From Rhodococcus sp. HM1 (GTDB lineage Bacteria > Actinomycetota > Actinomycetes > Mycobacteriales > Mycobacteriaceae), in assembly GCF_023218075.1 (NCBI RefSeq), contig NZ_JALPTB010000024.1, forward strand, positions 20,253-84,252: 64,000 bases of DNA, written 5' to 3'. The notes below the pieces were generated by a model. That model was not told where the DNA came from and searched no databases. It was given only the letters and a program-made list of their open reading frames with translations. Both the position numbers and the translations under genes were made by a program. This document shows, piece after piece, positions 19,880-24,951 of this stretch. Position 1 is the first letter of the stretch. Each line of letters opens with the position of its first letter.

Positions 19880-20542
19880 TCAGCGCAGGCCCGGGGACAC
19901 CAGCAGCCGCCGCAGCCCCGCGAAGATCGCAAGTACCACGAGCGAGCACACCGCGGCCAGCGCCGCCCCACCCACGACGAGCGTGTAGTCGTTGCGGGCG
20001 AGCCCGTCGACGATCGGGCGGCCCACCCCGCCGAAGCTGACGGCCGCGGCGATGGTCGCGGTCGCGACGATCTGCACCGCCGCGGTCCGCGTTCCCACCA
20101 GGATCAGCGGCAGTGCGACGGGCAGCTGCGCCCCGAACAGCACCTGCCGTCGCGTCATCCCCATCCCGCGCGCGGCGTCGGTGAGGGCGGGATCGACACC
20201 GCGGATCCCCTCGTACGTGTTGAGCAGGATCGGCGGGATCGCGAGCGCGAGCAGCGGGATCAGCACCGGCACCAGACCGATCCCGGACAGCACGACGAGC
20301 AGCACGAGCAGACCGTAGGTGGGCAGGGCGCGCGCCGAGTTCGCGATCAGCGTGACCACGGCACCGCCCCGGCCGGTGTGTCCCGTCCACAGGCCGAGGG
20401 GGAACGCGATCCCGAACGCGAGACCCAGCGCGAGCAGCGTGTACCCGAAGTGCTCGCGCAGCCGGGTCGGGATGCCGCCCGGTCCGGTCCAGTTCGCGGA
20501 CGTGCCGAAGTACTCGCCCAGGTAGTGCAGCAGTGTGTTCAT
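19880..20542 (-). CDS. OpuC/ProW-type ABC permease, second
   Basis: A 220-aa inner-membrane permease of the osmoprotectant/betaine ABC importer family. It begins MNTLLHYLGEYFGTSANW, has five to six hydrophobic segments and the family EAA-type loop (LTDAARGMGMTRRQVLFGAQLPVALPLILVG). The start at 20542 is preceded by GGAGCGG and is the last of a series of ATG codons repeated every 23 bases. It pairs with the permease gene upstream, as usual for four-component OpuC systems. Confidence 0.88.
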   Translation of the reverse strand: MNTLLHYLGEYFGTSANWTGPGGIPTRLREHFGYTLLALGLAFGIAFPLGLWTGHTGRGGAVVTLIANSARALPTYGLLVLLVVLSGIGLVPVLIPLLALAIPPILLNTYEGIRGVDPALTDAARGMGMTRRQVLFGAQLPVALPLILVGTRTAAVQIVATATIAAAVSFGGVGRPIVDGLARNDYTLVVGGAALAAVCSLVVLAIFAGLRRLLVSPGLR

Positions 20543-20611
20543 GGCGCACCGCTCCGTGTATTCATGGCGCACCGCTCCGTGTGTTCATGGCGCACCGCTC
20601 CGTGTGTTCAT
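20533..20611 (-). repeat. 23-base tandem repeat spanning the permease start
   Basis: Three adjacent 23-base copies at 20533-20555, 20556-20578 (one base different) and 20579-20601, plus a partial fourth from 20602. Each copy carries a Shine-Dalgarno-like GGAGCGG and an ATG on the minus strand. ATG codons therefore occur at 20611, 20588, 20565 and 20542. The first three open 8-codon ORFs coding MNTRSGAP, each stopping at a TGA that overlaps the next ATG; the first ATG overlaps the stop of the upstream permease. Confidence 0.9.
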
Positions 20612-21288
20612 CGGGCACTCCTGCGCGTCCGCCCCCGTGTCCGTGTTCGCCCCTGTGTCCGTGTTCGCCGCAGCCACGGCGTCGCGAGCCACTGCACCCC
20701 CAGCAGCGCGGCGTCCACGACGAGCGCCATGACCACGGTGACCACGATGCCGGTGATCGCCAGACCCAGCCGGTCGAGCTGGACCGCGGCCGTGAACAGC
20801 GACCCGAACGCCCCCATCCCGATGAGCGCGCCGACGCTGACCATGCTGATGTTCGCGACCGTCGCGACCCGCAGGCCCGCCAGCACCGTGGGCAACGCGA
20901 TCGGCAGATCCACCGTCAGCAGCCGGCGGGTCTCCGAGTAGCCCATCGCGGTGGCCGACTGGCGCACGCTCTCGGGCACCGCCCGCAGACCGTCGACCAC
21001 GTTGGGGATCAGCACGGCGAGCGTGTAGACGGCGAGGGGGATCACCACGGTCGTGCGGCTGATCCCGGTGAACGCGATGAGCAGCACGAAGAACGCAAGG
21101 GACGGAATCGAATACAGCACGCTCGCGCCCGCCAGCACCGGGGGATACCACCGCGGACGGCGCACACACAGCAACCCCAGCGGCAGCGCGACGACCAGCC
21201 CCAGCAGCGACGCCCCCAGCGCCATCGCCAGGTGGTCGACGAGCAGTTCCGTGAAACTGCCCAGATAGGACGGTATTCCGAGGTTCAC
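20608..21288 (-). CDS. OpuC/ProW-type ABC permease, first
   Basis: A 226-aa permease, start VNLGIPSYLGSFTELLVDHLAMALG. It has the binding-protein-dependent transport loop VRQSATAMGYSETRRLLTVDLPIALPTVLAG and six hydrophobic segments. The GTG overlaps the ATPase stop (GTGA), and its own stop overlaps the first of the tandem ATG codons before the second permease. The C-terminal tail is unusually Arg/Thr rich (TRTQGRTRTRGRTRR). Confidence 0.88.
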   Translation of the reverse strand: MNLGIPSYLGSFTELLVDHLAMALGASLLGLVVALPLGLLCVRRPRWYPPVLAGASVLYSIPSLAFFVLLIAFTGISRTTVVIPLAVYTLAVLIPNVVDGLRAVPESVRQSATAMGYSETRRLLTVDLPIALPTVLAGLRVATVANISMVSVGALIGMGAFGSLFTAAVQLDRLGLAITGIVVTVVMALVVDAALLGVQWLATPWLRRTRTQGRTRTRGRTRRSAR

Positions 21289-22376
21289 GCGTCGGTCCGT
21301 TCGGTGACGTCGACGGAGCGGGCGGCATGGTGCGCGCGGATCGTCGCGGCCAGTTCCTCCTGGCTGATCACCCCGAGCACTCGGCCGTCCGAATCGACGG
21401 CCACGGCGTGCCCGGAGGGGGAGAGCACCGCCGCGTCCAGCGCGACCCGCACCGAATCCCGGCCGGGGACGAATCCGCGGCTCGCGGGGACCGGTCCACC
21501 GGTGGCGTCGCGCCAGCCGACCGGACGCCGATCGTCGTCGACGACCAGCAGCCACTGTTCGCCGCCGGGGATGCGGTCGTCTCCGGCGGTGACGACCGGG
21601 TCGGTGCGCAGCGGCAGGTCGTCGGACGGGAAGAACGACAGCAGCCGGACGCCGCGGTCCGTGCCGAGGAAGTCGGCGACGAAGTCGTCGGCCGGTGCGG
21701 TCAGCAGATCCTCCGGCGGTCCGTAGTGCGCGAGGGTCCCGCCCGGCCGCATCACCGCGACCCGGTCGCCGAGGGTGATCGCCTCGTCGATGTCGTGGGT
21801 TACGAGCACGATCGTCTTGGCGAGTACCGACTGCAGGCGCAACAGTTCCTGCTGAAGTTCCTTGCGCACCACCGGGTCGACGGCCGAGAACGGCTCGTCC
21901 ATCAGCAGCACCGGGGGATCGGCGGCGAGCGCACGGGCCACGCCGACGCGCTGCTGCTGGCCGCCGGACAGCTGGGCCGGATAGCGCCGCGCGAACTCGG
22001 CTCCGAGCCCGACCCGTTCGAGCACCTCGAGGGCGGTCGCCCGGGCCTGCCTGCGGGTCGCCCCGAGCAGCCGCGGCACCGTCGCCACGTTGTCGACGAC
22101 GGTGCGGTGCGGGAACAGGCCGGCGTGCTGGATGACGTATCCGATGCCGCGCCGCAGCGTCTGCGGGTCCTGTTCGCGAACGTCCTTGCCGTCGAGCAGC
22201 ACCCGCCCGGCGGTCGGATCGACCATCCGGTTGATCATGCGCAGCGACGTCGTCTTCCCGCAGCCGGACGGTCCGACGAGGACCGTGAGGGTGCCGGTCG
22301 GCACCTCCAGGCTCAGTCCGTCGACCGCGACCGTGCCGTCCGGATAGCGCTTCTCGACGTTGTCGAACGTGATCAC
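21285..22376 (-). CDS. OpuC/ProV-type ABC ATPase with CBS region
   Basis: A 363-aa ATPase of a betaine-type importer. Walker A GPSGCGKTT, Q-loop YVIQHAGLFPHRTV, signature LSGGQQQRVGVARAL, Walker B VLLMDEPFSAVDP and H-loop VTHDIDEA are intact. The segment after about residue 240 has two CBS-like units (QWLLVVDDDRRPVGW and GHAVAVDSDGRVLGVISQEELAATI), which in the family sense ionic strength or nucleotides. It is the second gene of the transporter operon, nine bases behind the binding protein. Confidence 0.92.
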   Translation of the reverse strand: MITFDNVEKRYPDGTVAVDGLSLEVPTGTLTVLVGPSGCGKTTSLRMINRMVDPTAGRVLLDGKDVREQDPQTLRRGIGYVIQHAGLFPHRTVVDNVATVPRLLGATRRQARATALEVLERVGLGAEFARRYPAQLSGGQQQRVGVARALAADPPVLLMDEPFSAVDPVVRKELQQELLRLQSVLAKTIVLVTHDIDEAITLGDRVAVMRPGGTLAHYGPPEDLLTAPADDFVADFLGTDRGVRLLSFFPSDDLPLRTDPVVTAGDDRIPGGEQWLLVVDDDRRPVGWRDATGGPVPASRGFVPGRDSVRVALDAAVLSPSGHAVAVDSDGRVLGVISQEELAATIRAHHAARSVDVTERTDA

Positions 22377-22385
22377 CGTCGTGTC

Positions 22386-23294
22386 CTACCCGATGCCGGC
22401 GGACTGCAACCATTCCGCGGCAACCACGTCGATGTCGCCGCCCTCGGTCACGACCTGCCCGACCAGGACGATCAGATCCTCGGTGCTCAACTGCGCGGAC
22501 ACCTTGTTCAGGGTCTCGACGGCCTCGTCGGACAGGTCGGCGCGGTGCACGAGCGGAGTGACGTTCTGTGCTCCGAAGAGGGTCTGCGGATCATCGAGCG
22601 CGACAAACGGTTTCGTCGACAGCGACGGATCCGTGGTGTAGATGTTCGCGGCCTGGACGGTGCCGTCCTCGAGCGCGGCGATCGTGATCGGCCCGCCGGT
22701 GTCGGTGGGGACGAACTGCCGGAACTCGACGCCGTACACGTCCTTCAGCCCGACCAGACCCTGCTGCCGCGTCTCGAATTCCGGGGCCGCGCCGATCGCG
22801 AGTTCGCCGGCGACCGGCGCCAGATCGGCGATGCTCTCCAGGTTGTAGCGGTCCGCCGTCTCCCGCGTGACGACCACCGCGTCCTTGTTTTCGGCGCTCG
22901 CCGAGTCCAGGATCTCCACGCCGTCCGGAAGGGACTCGCGCAGTGCGGCATTCACGTCGTCGGTGGTGGTCGCGGTGCTGTCCGGGTTCACGCGGGCGAG
23001 CAGCGCACCGTTGTACTCGGGCAGCACGGTGATGCCGCCGGAAACGACCTGGTCGTAGTAGATCTCGCGGCTTCCGATGTTGAACCGGCGTGTGACGTCG
23101 GCGCCGGTGCTCTCGAGGGCCTGCGCGTAGATCTCGGCGAGCAGGACGTTCTCGGGGAAGTTGGCGGATCCGACGACGACGCTGCCGTTCCCGTCTCCGG
23201 ATGCCAGCGGATCGTCGGTGTCCCCGCCGGAACACGCGGTGAGGACCACGGCTGCGGCGGCCACGGCGGCGAACGTACGCACGAGACTCTTCAT
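22386..23294 (-). CDS. OpuC/ProX-type substrate-binding lipoprotein
   Basis: A 302-aa lipoprotein with signal peptide and lipobox VVLTACSGG (lipidated Cys about residue 21). The mature part has the family opening VVVGSANFPENVLLAEIYAQALES, then YYDQVVSGGITVLPEYNGALL and a late NKVSAQLSTEDLIVLVGQV. It binds quaternary-amine-type ligands in known OpuC systems; ergothioneine and carnitine are other ligands of the same fold, so the substrate stays open. It lies 68 bases after cysteine dioxygenase on the same strand. Confidence 0.9.
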   Translation of the reverse strand: MKSLVRTFAAVAAAAVVLTACSGGDTDDPLASGDGNGSVVVGSANFPENVLLAEIYAQALESTGADVTRRFNIGSREIYYDQVVSGGITVLPEYNGALLARVNPDSTATTTDDVNAALRESLPDGVEILDSASAENKDAVVVTRETADRYNLESIADLAPVAGELAIGAAPEFETRQQGLVGLKDVYGVEFRQFVPTDTGGPITIAALEDGTVQAANIYTTDPSLSTKPFVALDDPQTLFGAQNVTPLVHRADLSDEAVETLNKVSAQLSTEDLIVLVGQVVTEGGDIDVVAAEWLQSAGIG

Positions 23295-23362
23295 CGAGGG
23301 ATCTCCAATGCAGTCGGCGACCGACCGACTCTAACCCGACACCCCGACTCGTGCCGGATTTG

Positions 23363-23860
23363 TCACCAATCGGCCCCGGCGCGTTCGGAACTCGTCAGAC
23401 GCAGGATCCCGTCCTCGATCCGGTAGCGGTGCATGCTGCTCAGGGCCGGGGCATAGACGTGCACGGACACGGCGGGACGGTCGCCGGCGTTGACGATCTC
23501 GTGGACGTGATGTCTGTCGAACTCGCGGGCCTGTCCCGCGTCGTACTCCGCGGTGGACAGGGTCGGCTCCAACCCTTCGAGCAGGCCGTCGCGTGGATTT
23601 TCGACGACGATCTCGCGCAGCGAGCCGTCCGCGACCGCGAACACCCCGGCGCTACCGCCGTGGTCGTGGACGCCGGTTCGTTGCCCGGGCAGCCAGCTGA
23701 GCAACCACACCTCGTACTCGTCGGTGAACGTGAGCCGCGTGTACCAGCGTTCCTGCGCGTCGTACCGGACGATCGGCAGCCACCGGTCCGGGTCGTCGGC
23801 GATGGAGCGGGCGACGGCGGCGAGATCGACGGACGTACGGGAGAGAACGGAGGCGGGCAT
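23363..23860 (-). CDS. Cysteine dioxygenase family protein
   Basis: A 165-aa cupin iron enzyme oxidising L-cysteine to cysteine sulfinate. Metal His residues appear as HDHGGSAGVF and, later, HHVHEIVN; the C-terminal strand VSVHVYAPALSSMHRY is also typical. An Arg that binds the substrate carboxylate is likely in RWYTRL. The Shine-Dalgarno GAGGAA lies inside a hairpin, and 60 bases upstream ends a leader ORF with six consecutive Cys codons. Both suggest control by cysteine supply. Length is slightly shorter than mammalian enzymes and usual for bacteria. Confidence 0.92.
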   Translation of the reverse strand: MPASVLSRTSVDLAAVARSIADDPDRWLPIVRYDAQERWYTRLTFTDEYEVWLLSWLPGQRTGVHDHGGSAGVFAVADGSLREIVVENPRDGLLEGLEPTLSTAEYDAGQAREFDRHHVHEIVNAGDRPAVSVHVYAPALSSMHRYRIEDGILRLTSSERAGADW

Positions 23861-23864
23861 CGTG

Positions 23865-23897
23865 GTTCCTCGAAGAACTGCGGGCGCGTTCGCACCC
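23865..23897 (-). promoter_or_regulatory. Hairpins before cysteine dioxygenase start
   Basis: Two stem-loops follow the leader peptide in the minus-strand RNA. The first pairs GGGTGC with GCGCCC (23897-23892 with 23887-23882, loop GAAC, one G-U). The second pairs GTTCT with GGAAC (23878-23874 with 23869-23865, loop TCGA, one G-U) and includes the Shine-Dalgarno of the dioxygenase. Suited to attenuation or translational masking. Confidence 0.55.
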
Positions 23898-23920
23898 GAA
23901 AGACAGGCAGGGTTGCTGGG

Positions 23921-24022
23921 TCAGTCGTGACAACAACAGCAACAACAGCCACAGGAACCACCGGCGACGTGGACGAGGTCCACATGATGCCCGCGGAGTC
24001 GCGGGGTCGCCGAAGGATGCAT
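23921..24022 (-). CDS. Poly-cysteine leader peptide
   Basis: A 33-codon ORF starting MHPSATPRLRGHHVDL and ending GGSCGCCCCCCHD: eight Cys in the last thirteen residues, six in a row. It stops 60 bases before cysteine dioxygenase. A promoter is placed so that the transcript would begin at or within a base of its ATG (leaderless). Leaderless poly-Cys short ORFs are known in mycobacteria as cysteine-responsive attenuators of downstream operons; ribosomes stalling on Cys codons when Cys-tRNA is scarce change access to the next gene. A second in-frame ATG at 24031 is possible. Confidence 0.85.
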   Translation of the reverse strand: MHPSATPRLRGHHVDLVHVAGGSCGCCCCCCHD

Positions 24023-24029
24023 GCCGACC

Positions 24030-24058
24030 ATGTCATCTGTGATCGTTCGCTTTGTCAA
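24030..24058 (-). promoter_or_regulatory. Promoter of the poly-Cys leader
   Basis: Minus-strand -35 TTGACA (24058-24053) and -10-like TGACAT (24035-24030) with 17-base spacing. The ATG of the leader ORF is eight bases past the -10, so initiation would be leaderless. The promoter lies over the last codons and stop of the upstream amidohydrolase gene. Confidence 0.6.
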
Positions 24059-24951
24059 GGGTTTTGTGTGAGGGATCTCGGCCACAGCAGCCTCGCAGGA
24101 TTGTCGATCCGCAGCCGCCGGTCCCCGGCGCCGACGCTCAGCGGCGGCGCGTAGGGGCGGTCCGAGCCGAGCACGATCCGGTCGGCACCGAGCTGCGCGG
24201 CCACCGCGTCGACGGTCCCGGACCCGTACGACGACGTCTCCACGAACACGCCGGTCCCGGGGTGTCCGTCCGGCCCGCCACGCGCGGCGATCCGGTCGGT
24301 GTGCAACGGCGCGAGCCCGGCGAGCATCGCGAACACCACCCGCAGCCGCGGATACCGGGGCGCGCCGTACTCGTGCCACGCGAACCAGGCCGCGTGCATC
24401 TGCCCGACGTACCCGACGATCGCAGCCCACCACGCAGGCCCGCCCGGGGCCACCGGACCCGGGTGCACGAACAGCGGCTTGTCCTGCCGTTCGAGTTCGG
24501 CCAGCAGCGGGCCGCACCGGTCGTACCCGGCCTCGTCGGCGATCGCATTCGCGGGAAGTTGCAGACCCACACACCCGGCGCCGAGGACGTCACGCAGCGT
24601 CGTCGGGTCGGGGTCGTCGAGTCCGGCTGCCGCCCACGCCCCGAACGGGCGGGGCAGCGCCAGCACCCCTTCGTGATAGGCGTCGAGCAGCGGGCGGGCC
24701 TGATCCGCGCGCAGCGACTCGATACCGAGCGGACTCGACAACGACACGAGCGCAAGATCGATTCCGTCGGCTGCGGCGAGTTCGGCACGCGCCGAGACGG
24801 AATGGTCGCCGGGCTGCACCCGGTAGGGCGGCTCCCCGATGGTGTGCAGGGTCCAGCCGTCGAGCCGCGGCGCGGCCTCACGGGCCCGCAGGGCGGCCAG
24901 GAACGGTTCCGGCCACACGTGCTGGTGGACATCGATCCGCGGGGCGCTCAT
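24055..24951 (-). CDS. Amidohydrolase family protein
   Basis: A 298-aa TIM-barrel hydrolase/decarboxylase of the amidohydrolase-2 type. It begins MSAPRIDVHQHVWPEPFLAAL with the metal-binding H-x-H, has PLFVHPGPVAPGGPAWW and a late Asp in IVLGSDRPYAPP. Related enzymes include aminocarboxymuconate-type decarboxylases and lactonases; substrate not assignable. Its 3' end contains the promoter of the Cys leader, so transcription may read through into cysteine dioxygenase. Confidence 0.78.
   Translation of the reverse strand: MSAPRIDVHQHVWPEPFLAALRAREAAPRLDGWTLHTIGEPPYRVQPGDHSVSARAELAAADGIDLALVSLSSPLGIESLRADQARPLLDAYHEGVLALPRPFGAWAAAGLDDPDPTTLRDVLGAGCVGLQLPANAIADEAGYDRCGPLLAELERQDKPLFVHPGPVAPGGPAWWAAIVGYVGQMHAAWFAWHEYGAPRYPRLRVVFAMLAGLAPLHTDRIAARGGPDGHPGTGVFVETSSYGSGTVDAVAAQLGADRIVLGSDRPYAPPLSVGAGDRRLRIDNPARLLWPRSLTQNP

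What the first reader, a model, noticed from the sequence alone, without database searches (positions are those of the whole stretch)
23921..24058. Leaderless poly-cysteine leader peptide upstream of cysteine dioxygenase
Seen: a 33-codon ORF ends with eight Cys in its last thirteen residues (six in a row), placed 60 bases before cysteine dioxygenase, with a -35/-10 pair set so that transcription would start at its ATG, and two hairpins after it, one containing the dioxygenase Shine-Dalgarno. Known: leaderless poly-Cys short ORFs control sulfur genes in mycobacteria. Inference: this one controls cysteine breakdown rather than synthesis, so high Cys-tRNA should favour expression, an opposite logic to biosynthetic attenuators.
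Basis: partly seen in the sequence, partly recalled or inferred. Interest (0 to 1): 0.88.

Follow-up and report, generated by a model that had tools for sequence, protein, structure and literature searches.

The report
Cysteine-run leader gating cysteine breakdown
A tiny cysteine-rich reading frame sits just before a cysteine-breakdown gene in this bacterium and in many relatives, and its RNA is predicted to hide that gene's start signal until a ribosome pauses at the cysteine codons, which would, surprisingly, turn breakdown on when cysteine is scarce.

Summary
The leader is real: 33 codons, six Cys in a row and seven (not eight) in the last thirteen, ending 60 nt before a Pfam cysteine dioxygenase (CDO). 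In the genus, 7 of 12 CDO-bearing genomes keep the whole leader; three have a divergent Cys-ending one, one has lost the stop codon, in one none was seen. In the wider family, 70 of 99 CDO loci examined carry a different short leader with Cys-Cys at its end (typically QECCRG). Six Streptomyces-like genomes carry two further, unrelated Cys-rich leaders before their two CDO genes. In the window, leader codons just before the first Cys pair with the CDO Shine-Dalgarno (9 bp), and the leader start pairs with the CDO start codon. A ribosome modelled on the first five Cys codons frees the Shine-Dalgarno; one at the stop codon does not. Covariation in the family-wide type supports a fold covering the CDO start. 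Regulation is untested; three divergent leaders and two other Cys leaders of this genome do not fit the model, and published CDO expression points both ways. Known kind, unexpected target and sign.

The parts
24053..24058 (-). -35 hexamer TTGACA (overlaps the stop codon of the upstream amidohydrolase-like gene)
   Evidence: TTGAC[AC] at the same place in the related loci read whose contig reaches that far (L006 does not)
24030..24035 (-). weak -10 hexamer TGACAT, 7 nt before the ATG; places transcription start at the leader ATG (inferred)
   Evidence: not listed by the consensus scan
23921..24022 (-). leader ORF MHPSATPRLRGHHVDLVHVAGGSCGCCCCCCHD, 33 codons plus TGA
   Evidence: conserved in 7 of 12 CDO-bearing genomes of the genus
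23930..23953 (-). Cys cluster: TGT GGC and then six Cys codons
23953..23961 (-). anti-Shine-Dalgarno GTGGTTCCT, directly before and touching the first Cys codon
23862..23870 (-). CDO ribosome-binding site AGGAACCAC, 9-bp complement of the anti-Shine-Dalgarno
24016..24020 (-). GCATC at the leader start, predicted to pair with the CDO start codon
23857..23861 (-). GATGC including the CDO ATG, predicted partner of 24016-24020
23969..23983 (-). hairpin GTGGACCTCGTCCAC made by the His-Val-Asp-Leu-Val-His codons
23881..23898 (-). spacer hairpin CGGGTGC-GAAC-GCGCCCG, inside the long-range helix
23363..23860 (-). cysteine dioxygenase type I, 165 aa
   Evidence: (PF05995)
22386..23294 (-). OpuAC-type (glycine-betaine-like) ABC transporter binding protein, same strand, 68 nt after CDO; possible operon member
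   Evidence: (PF04069)
21285..22376 (-). ABC transporter ATPase of the same cluster
   Evidence: (PF00005)
24055..24951 (-). upstream amidohydrolase-like gene (Pfam match below the curated cut-off)
   Evidence: PF04909, 22.7 bits against 26.4

Best explanation
The window carries a 33-codon poly-cysteine leader ORF 60 nt before a cysteine dioxygenase gene, and the leader RNA is predicted to fold over the dioxygenase's ribosome-binding site and start codon, so that a ribosome slowed at the cysteine codons would likely uncover them and let the enzyme be made. Shown: the ORF, the 9-bp complement between the codons before the first Cys and the CDO Shine-Dalgarno, the leaderless-type promoter spacing, conservation in relatives, and no intrinsic terminator found. 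Predicted: transcription starts at the ATG; with no ribosome, or one at the stop codon, the CDO start is closed; with a ribosome waiting at one of the first five Cys codons it is open. Inferred: the wait is longest when Cys-tRNA is scarce, so CDO would rise in cysteine shortage. The fold would also open for a ribosome waiting a few codons earlier, so the Cys specificity comes only from where ribosomes pause. Why a cysteine-destroying enzyme should be made then is unexplained; a role in sulfur scavenging is a guess, prompted by the neighbouring betaine-type transporter genes.
For: Leader kept whole in 7 of 12 CDO-bearing genomes of the genus, with an in-frame 3-nt gap in the Cys tract between the window and R. 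phenolicus. In the window, freeing 5 nt of the Shine-Dalgarno costs 10.0 kcal/mol without a ribosome, 2.6-5.5 with the A site on Cys codons 1-5, and 10.0 at the stop codon; in the 7 whole leaders the cost falls from 4.9-10.5 to 2.4-5.5 at the first Cys codon. Shuffled leaders reach the native cost of freeing Shine-Dalgarno and start codon in 2 of 300 (window), 3 of 300 and 12 of 300 cases. In the wider family, 70 of 99 CDO loci have a Cys-Cys leader against 4 of 99 on the reverse strand and 14 of 99 further upstream (two hits set aside); 41 of 49 scored lose more than 1 kcal/mol of Shine-Dalgarno cost with a ribosome at the first of the two Cys. Base pairs over the CDO start covary: 4 pairs with changes on both sides, reached by 1 of 500 shuffles. 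Leaders fit their own start sites better than swapped ones, 0 of 5000 permutations for the 49. Unrelated Streptomyces-like type 2 leaders show the same contrast between early Cys codons and stop. No intrinsic terminator in 23250-24150. CDO rises under sulfate limitation in a Gordonia (PMC7661421, passages).
Against: No expression, start-site or ribosome data for this locus. The same model shows no such opening for the three divergent leaders of the genus, for the poly-Cys leader before the sulfite-reductase-type gene of this genome, or for a second Cys leader of this genome, so it has no positive control. In the family-wide type a ribosome at the stop codon opens the site as well (39 of 49), so sign is not decided there. 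The Shine-Dalgarno helix alone shows no significant matching of leader to its own site (328 of 5000), the swap test is not significant within the genus (787 of 5000, n = 7), and a 9-bp helix (G-U allowed) occurs in 23 of 300 shuffled leaders. For Streptomyces-like type 2, scoring the Shine-Dalgarno alone showed almost no change in the 2 of 6 loci scored; the start-codon region was chosen afterwards. CDO rises on Cys-rich feather medium in a Streptomyces (PMC7181669, passages). The sign makes little physiological sense for a purely catabolic enzyme.
Confidence: 0.5

Rival explanations
1. One reading: high Cys-tRNA lets ribosomes finish the leader, and completion (termination close by, or re-initiation) favours CDO translation, so cysteine induces its own breakdown.
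For: Physiologically sensible. In the family-wide type a ribosome at the stop codon opens the CDO start as well as one at the Cys codons, and likewise in 5 of 6 Streptomyces-like type 1 loci, L140 hardly changing. cdo1 and cdo2 rise 50.2-fold and 8.3-fold on feather medium in Streptomyces SCUT-3 (PMC7181669, passages).
Against: In the window a ribosome at the stop codon leaves the Shine-Dalgarno as closed as no ribosome at all (10.0 kcal/mol), and the stop codon is 60 nt from the CDO start. Streptomyces-like type 2 shows the same. CDO up under sulfate limitation in a Gordonia (PMC7661421).
Confidence: 0.17
2. The leader is translated and coupled to CDO, but insensitive to cysteine: any ribosome on its second half opens the CDO start, so the leader only ties CDO to general translation.
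For: In the window, A-site positions 51-63, before the Cys codons, open the Shine-Dalgarno as well as Cys positions do (2.6-3.7 kcal/mol).
Against: Repeated presence of two or more Cys codons in leaders of unrelated sequence before CDO, and an in-frame Cys-tract length change, are hard to explain without a role for cysteine.
Confidence: 0.15
3. Cysteine-dependent transcription attenuation through Rho: the state of the leader ribosome decides whether Rho terminates transcription before CDO.
For: Seliverstov et al. proposed Rho for mycobacterial cys leaders that lack terminators (PMC1262725, passages); no intrinsic terminator found here.
Against: The spacer is 60 nt, short for Rho loading (recalled), and the conserved pairing targets the Shine-Dalgarno and the start codon, which fits translational control better.
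Confidence: 0.1

Closest known systems
Leaderless poly-cysteine short-ORF attenuators of mycobacteria (Canestrari et al. 2020, Mol Microbiol; paper not held, recalled and seen as cited in PMC9094748 and PMC13236596)
   Same: Short leaderless-type ORF with a Cys cluster at its end, before a sulfur-metabolism gene, no intrinsic terminator; stalled ribosome thought to unmask a hidden ribosome-binding site.
   Different: The gene is a cysteine dioxygenase, which destroys cysteine. The targets I could read of (cysA2, Rv0485, nirA in PMC4633059) are not CDO. Here the CDO start codon is predicted to be paired as well. Whether Canestrari et al. list a CDO I could not check.
Candidate cys leader peptides of Actinobacteria (Seliverstov et al. 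2005, PMC1262725, passages)
   Same: Cys codon runs near the leader stop, no terminator.
   Different: Described before cys and cbs operons; no hidden ribosome-binding site was proposed in the passages seen.
trp-type transcription attenuators
   Same: Leader peptide rich in the regulating amino acid.
   Different: No terminator/antiterminator pair found in 23250-24150.
Poly-Cys leader before the sulfite-reductase-type gene of the same genome (L185; nirA-type, known kind)
   Same: HVD-type leader, Cys-rich end, -10-like CACAAT 7 nt before the ATG.
   Different: 136-nt spacer, and the footprint model predicts no opening at its Cys codons.

Membership tests
Leaderless poly-Cys attenuator | Short ORF with a Cys cluster at its 3' end | tested here: met
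   7 Cys in the last 13 codons, six in a row
Leaderless poly-Cys attenuator | Transcription starts at the leader start codon | not testable with these tools
   Promoter spacing fits (TTGACA-17-TGACAT-7-ATG); no start-site data. In the family-wide type a -10-like hexamer [TC]ANN[AC]T lies 6-7 nt before an in-frame start in 50 of 70 leaders, background 29 of 3759 starts; this pattern was chosen after TANNNT had given 19 of 68 against 23 of 3687
Leaderless poly-Cys attenuator | Lies upstream of a gene of sulfur or cysteine metabolism and is conserved there | tested here: met
   Before CDO in 7 of 12 CDO-bearing genomes of the genus in whole form; other Cys-Cys leaders before CDO in 70 of 99 family loci
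Leaderless poly-Cys attenuator | Ribosome stalled at the Cys codons unmasks the downstream ribosome-binding site | tested here: inconclusive
   Predicted for this leader; model has no positive control and fails on the nirA-type leader of the genome
Leaderless poly-Cys attenuator | Downstream gene responds to cysteine limitation through the Cys codons | not testable with these tools
   Needs reporters or proteomics
trp-type transcription attenuator | Intrinsic terminator between leader and gene | tested here: not met
   0 terminator-like sites in 23250-24150
Known Rfam RNA family | Match to a covariance model | tested here: not met
   No match with E up to 1 in 23300-24300
Cysteine dioxygenase type I | Profile match over the curated cut-off | tested here: met
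   PF05995, 84.4 bits, cut-off 23; solved cysteine dioxygenases match at E down to 6e-17, 3-mercaptopropionate dioxygenases at 2e-4
Cysteine dioxygenase type I | Acts on cysteine rather than another thiol | not tested
   The Tyr-Thr-Arg motif (residues 40-42, invariant in the 10 sequences) resembles the human CDO Arg60 motif as I recall it; no assay

The most novel reading that the evidence does not exclude
In many Actinobacteria the enzyme that destroys cysteine is wired to switch on when charged Cys-tRNA runs short. Leaders of at least four unrelated sequences have come to hide the CDO start behind or beside their cysteine codons, so CDO belongs to the cysteine-starvation response and probably serves sulfur retrieval rather than disposal of excess cysteine.
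Probability: 0.35. Interest if true: 0.82.

Novelty: new variant of a known kind. Interest (0 to 1): 0.62.

Why it matters
If the predicted sign is right, a catabolic enzyme is under starvation control by the ribosome itself, which would change the view of what bacterial cysteine dioxygenase is for. If the sign is the reverse, it would be a leader-peptide switch that reads amino-acid plenty through completed translation. Either way one reporter pair decides it, and the leader gives a simple sequence mark for finding cysteine-regulated operons in Actinobacteria.

Tried and rejected
Ideas rejected: chance Cys run (none of six in 40 simulated windows); part of a toxin peptide (weak NCBIfam streptolysin S family match, E 0.0045, 16.9 bits against a cut-off of 35, taken as Cys-rich composition); known Rfam element (none); intrinsic terminator (none). 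The pairing that I saw by eye in the second Cys leader of this genome (L018) is not borne out by folding. TANNNT as a strict -10 for the family-wide leaders gave only 19 of 68, after which I relaxed the pattern.

Led nowhere: search of the named genome collection gave only 3 loci, R. phenolicus with the leader, S. himastatinicus and a Pseudomonas without one in 450 nt. Of 9 annotated plasmid records with a CDO match I fetched 4: Nocardia farcinica and Streptomyces sp. BHT-5-2 have a Cys leader, Tsukamurella and Embleya do not. Outside the family I read 47 CDO loci of the class search; 14 have a leader I accept, 12 of them from 6 genomes of one genus, and no statistical control was run for that count. 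Paper searches listed none that I recognised as describing a leader before CDO; the key paper of 2020 is not held.

Dropped rows: 2 of 72 hits (L103, L110) lie inside the CDO frame and were set aside; one search leaves out such rows too; 27 of the 49 scored leaders (13 codons, spacing 36-44 nt, distinct sequences) went into the covariation alignment.

Full report
What is there. On the minus strand a 33-codon ORF (24022-23921) ends in Cys-Gly-Cys6-His-Asp and stops 60 nt before a 165-aa cysteine dioxygenase (23860-23363; PF05995, 84.4 bits). Seven of the last thirteen residues are Cys, not eight. TTGACA, 17 nt, TGACAT and 7 nt precede the ATG, so transcription could start at the ATG itself (inferred); the -10 is weak and the consensus scan lists no promoter. 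The Cys run is the only one of four or more in the window, and simulated windows gave 0.05 on average, none of six.

Conservation in the genus. A search of 18 genomes of the genus found CDO in 12. The whole leader, of the form MHxxATxxxRxxHVD[LY]VxxAGG[SF]CGC..., stands before CDO in 7 of them, R. phenolicus among them. One (G017) has the same leader but no stop codon at its end; the frame runs 160 nt into CDO in another frame. Three (G001, G010, G011) have GTG-start leaders of different sequence ending RLHCCH or SCPGCRR. In one (G007), whose CDO match is weak (E 5.9e-6), none was seen. Between the window and R. phenolicus the Cys tract differs by an in-frame 3-nt gap (an alignment that by my choice of ends lacks the CDO start on one side).

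Conservation in the family. A CDO profile from the genus matched 174 of 251 genomes of the family. I read the upstream DNA of 99 matches outside the genus (80 stretches search loci). A short ORF with Cys-Cys in its last six codons ends 20-400 nt before the match in 72 of 99; two of these lie inside the CDO frame and are set aside, leaving 70. The reverse strand of the same stretches gives 4 of 99, and the forward strand 620-1000 nt upstream 14 of 99. By my own tally of the genus column, leaders occur in 15 of the 23 genera represented. The typical leader has 13 codons, GTG ... CAG GAG TGT TGT CGA GGC TGA. Among 50 leaders with a -10-like hexamer 6-7 nt before the start, 42 have 13 codons and 40 end in GAG TGT TGT CGA GGC TGA. 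The hexamer pattern was relaxed after a stricter one gave 19 of 68; background rates are 0.6 and 0.8%. The CDO protein of this type is distant from that of the window (E near 1e-20 against 1e-90) and in some loci is followed by a rhodanese-like gene (by eye). A named example is Nocardia farcinica NCTC11134 (L191).

Further out. A class-wide search of 118 genomes found CDO in 56. Of 47 loci outside the family that I read, 14 have a leader I accept. Twelve come from six genomes of one genus, Streptomyces by the match with Streptomyces sp. BHT-5-2 (L192): one CDO gene follows VRLWRRVHMDL[VL]RYAGCVCRPS[CF], the other a leader ending in ARCSCC...C or a variant of it. The seventh genome of that genus (L153) shows none. 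So Cys leaders of unrelated sequence stand before different CDO genes, but far from everywhere.

The fold. The window's leader and CDO start fold into one structure, -78.9 kcal/mol, 3.94 SD below shuffles. GTGGTTCCT (23961-23953), the codons just before the first Cys, pairs with AGGAACCAC (23870-23862), the CDO Shine-Dalgarno; GCATC at the leader start pairs with GATGC around the CDO ATG. Shuffled leaders reach the native cost of freeing Shine-Dalgarno and start codon in 2 of 300 cases, though a 9-bp helix with G-U allowed occurs in 23 of 300. The family-wide type does the same with other letters: CCAGGAG before the Cys codons against (C)TTCCTGG, and GCATGAG against CTCATGC around the CDO start, with a hairpin GTCGAGGC/GCCTYGAC at the leader stop. 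On 27 of 49 such leaders the start-codon helix and the stop hairpin are 97.4% paired, with four pairs changed on both sides (1 of 500 shuffles; covariation score 0 of 500; related sequences can inflate this), for example ATG/GTG starts of CDO with T/C in the leader. Leaders suit their own start sites better than swapped ones: 12.2 against 10.7 kcal/mol, 0 of 5000 permutations, for the 49; not significant for the seven of the genus (787 of 5000). The window's start site with family-wide leaders costs 4.3 on average against 12.3 native. The Shine-Dalgarno helix alone is conserved rather than covarying (328 of 5000).

The sign. I modelled a ribosome as an unpaired footprint and asked what it costs to free the Shine-Dalgarno. 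In the window: 10.0 kcal/mol without ribosome, 5.5, 3.7, 3.5, 2.6 and 5.2 with the A site on Cys codons 1-5, 9.9 and 8.9 on codons 6 and 7, 10.0 at the stop codon. In the seven whole leaders the cost at the first Cys is 2.4-5.5 against 4.9-10.5 without ribosome; at the stop it is fully restored in the window and R. phenolicus and partly or wholly in the others (4.2-6.4). Positions up to six codons before the first Cys open the site as well, so cysteine specificity rests on where ribosomes wait. Streptomyces-like type 2 leaders repeat the contrast for the CDO start codon: 7.8-17.8 without ribosome, 3.6-5.8 at the first Cys, 8.0-18.1 at the stop, a measure chosen after the Shine-Dalgarno alone had shown almost no change in the two of six loci then scored. 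In the family-wide type Cys and stop positions open the site about equally (mean 7.3, 4.5 and 4.4; 41 and 39 of 49 lose more than 1 kcal/mol), and in Streptomyces-like type 1 likewise, L140 hardly changing.

What does not fit. The three divergent leaders of the genus, the poly-Cys leader before the sulfite-reductase-type gene of the same genome and a second HVDL Cys leader of that genome show no such opening in the model. The model thus has no positive control here. Published expression is split: CDO is higher in a Gordonia with organosulfonates instead of sulfate (PMC7661421, passages; whether that CDO has a leader is unknown); two cdo genes rise 50.2- and 8.3-fold on feather medium in Streptomyces SCUT-3 (PMC7181669, passages); in S. 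shaoguanensis two CDO genes rise at 96 h, as do cysD, cysNC, cysC and cysH (PMC12763843, passages). The passages seen of a proteome study of R. qingshengii IGTS8 do not mention CDO (PMC8557817, 12 of 42 places shown).

Known or new. Leaderless poly-Cys ORFs as cysteine-responsive attenuators are known in mycobacteria (Canestrari et al. 2020, not held; cited in PMC9094748 and PMC13236596; cysA2, Rv0485 and nirA leaders in PMC4633059), and Cys leader peptides were predicted in 2005 (PMC1262725). New here, as far as my ten paper searches show, are the CDO target, its spread in several unrelated leader forms, and the predicted starvation sign for a breakdown enzyme. Whether the 2020 paper lists a CDO among its loci I could not check.

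Noticed in passing
L018:1481-1564 (G000 contig C177): A second HVDL Cys leader of this genome, VTHRQLTRRLHVDLVRVAGAACCHIHR, before a small ORF (L018:1669-2184) and an acyl-CoA-dehydrogenase-like gene; the footprint model predicts no opening there.
   Followed up: partly
L185, leader ending 463 nt before the PF03460 match (G000 contig C192): Poly-Cys leader MTGLGVRLVARRHVDFKRVCASCCQPCAVCSCADCR before the sulfite-reductase-type gene, a known kind; 136-nt spacer; no opening predicted at its Cys codons.
   Followed up: partly
L006 (G017): The leader has CGA where its relatives have the stop codon; the frame goes on for 160 nt into CDO in another frame.
   Followed up: partly
window 19880-23294 and L193: CDO lies beside glycine-betaine-type ABC transporter genes in the window and, in another arrangement, on a Tsukamurella plasmid; a sulfur-containing betaine as substrate would link the two, which is a guess.
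   Followed up: no
L136-L141 and L165-L168, L175, L176: Six Streptomyces-like genomes have two CDO genes, each with its own unrelated Cys-rich leader.
   Followed up: partly
L140, spacer between leader and CDO: A long run of C (several tens of bases) lies in the leader-CDO spacer of one Streptomyces-like genome only.
   Followed up: no
window 23924-24022: The leader peptide gives a weak match to the NCBIfam streptolysin S family (E 0.0045, below cut-off), taken as an effect of Cys-rich composition.
   Followed up: no
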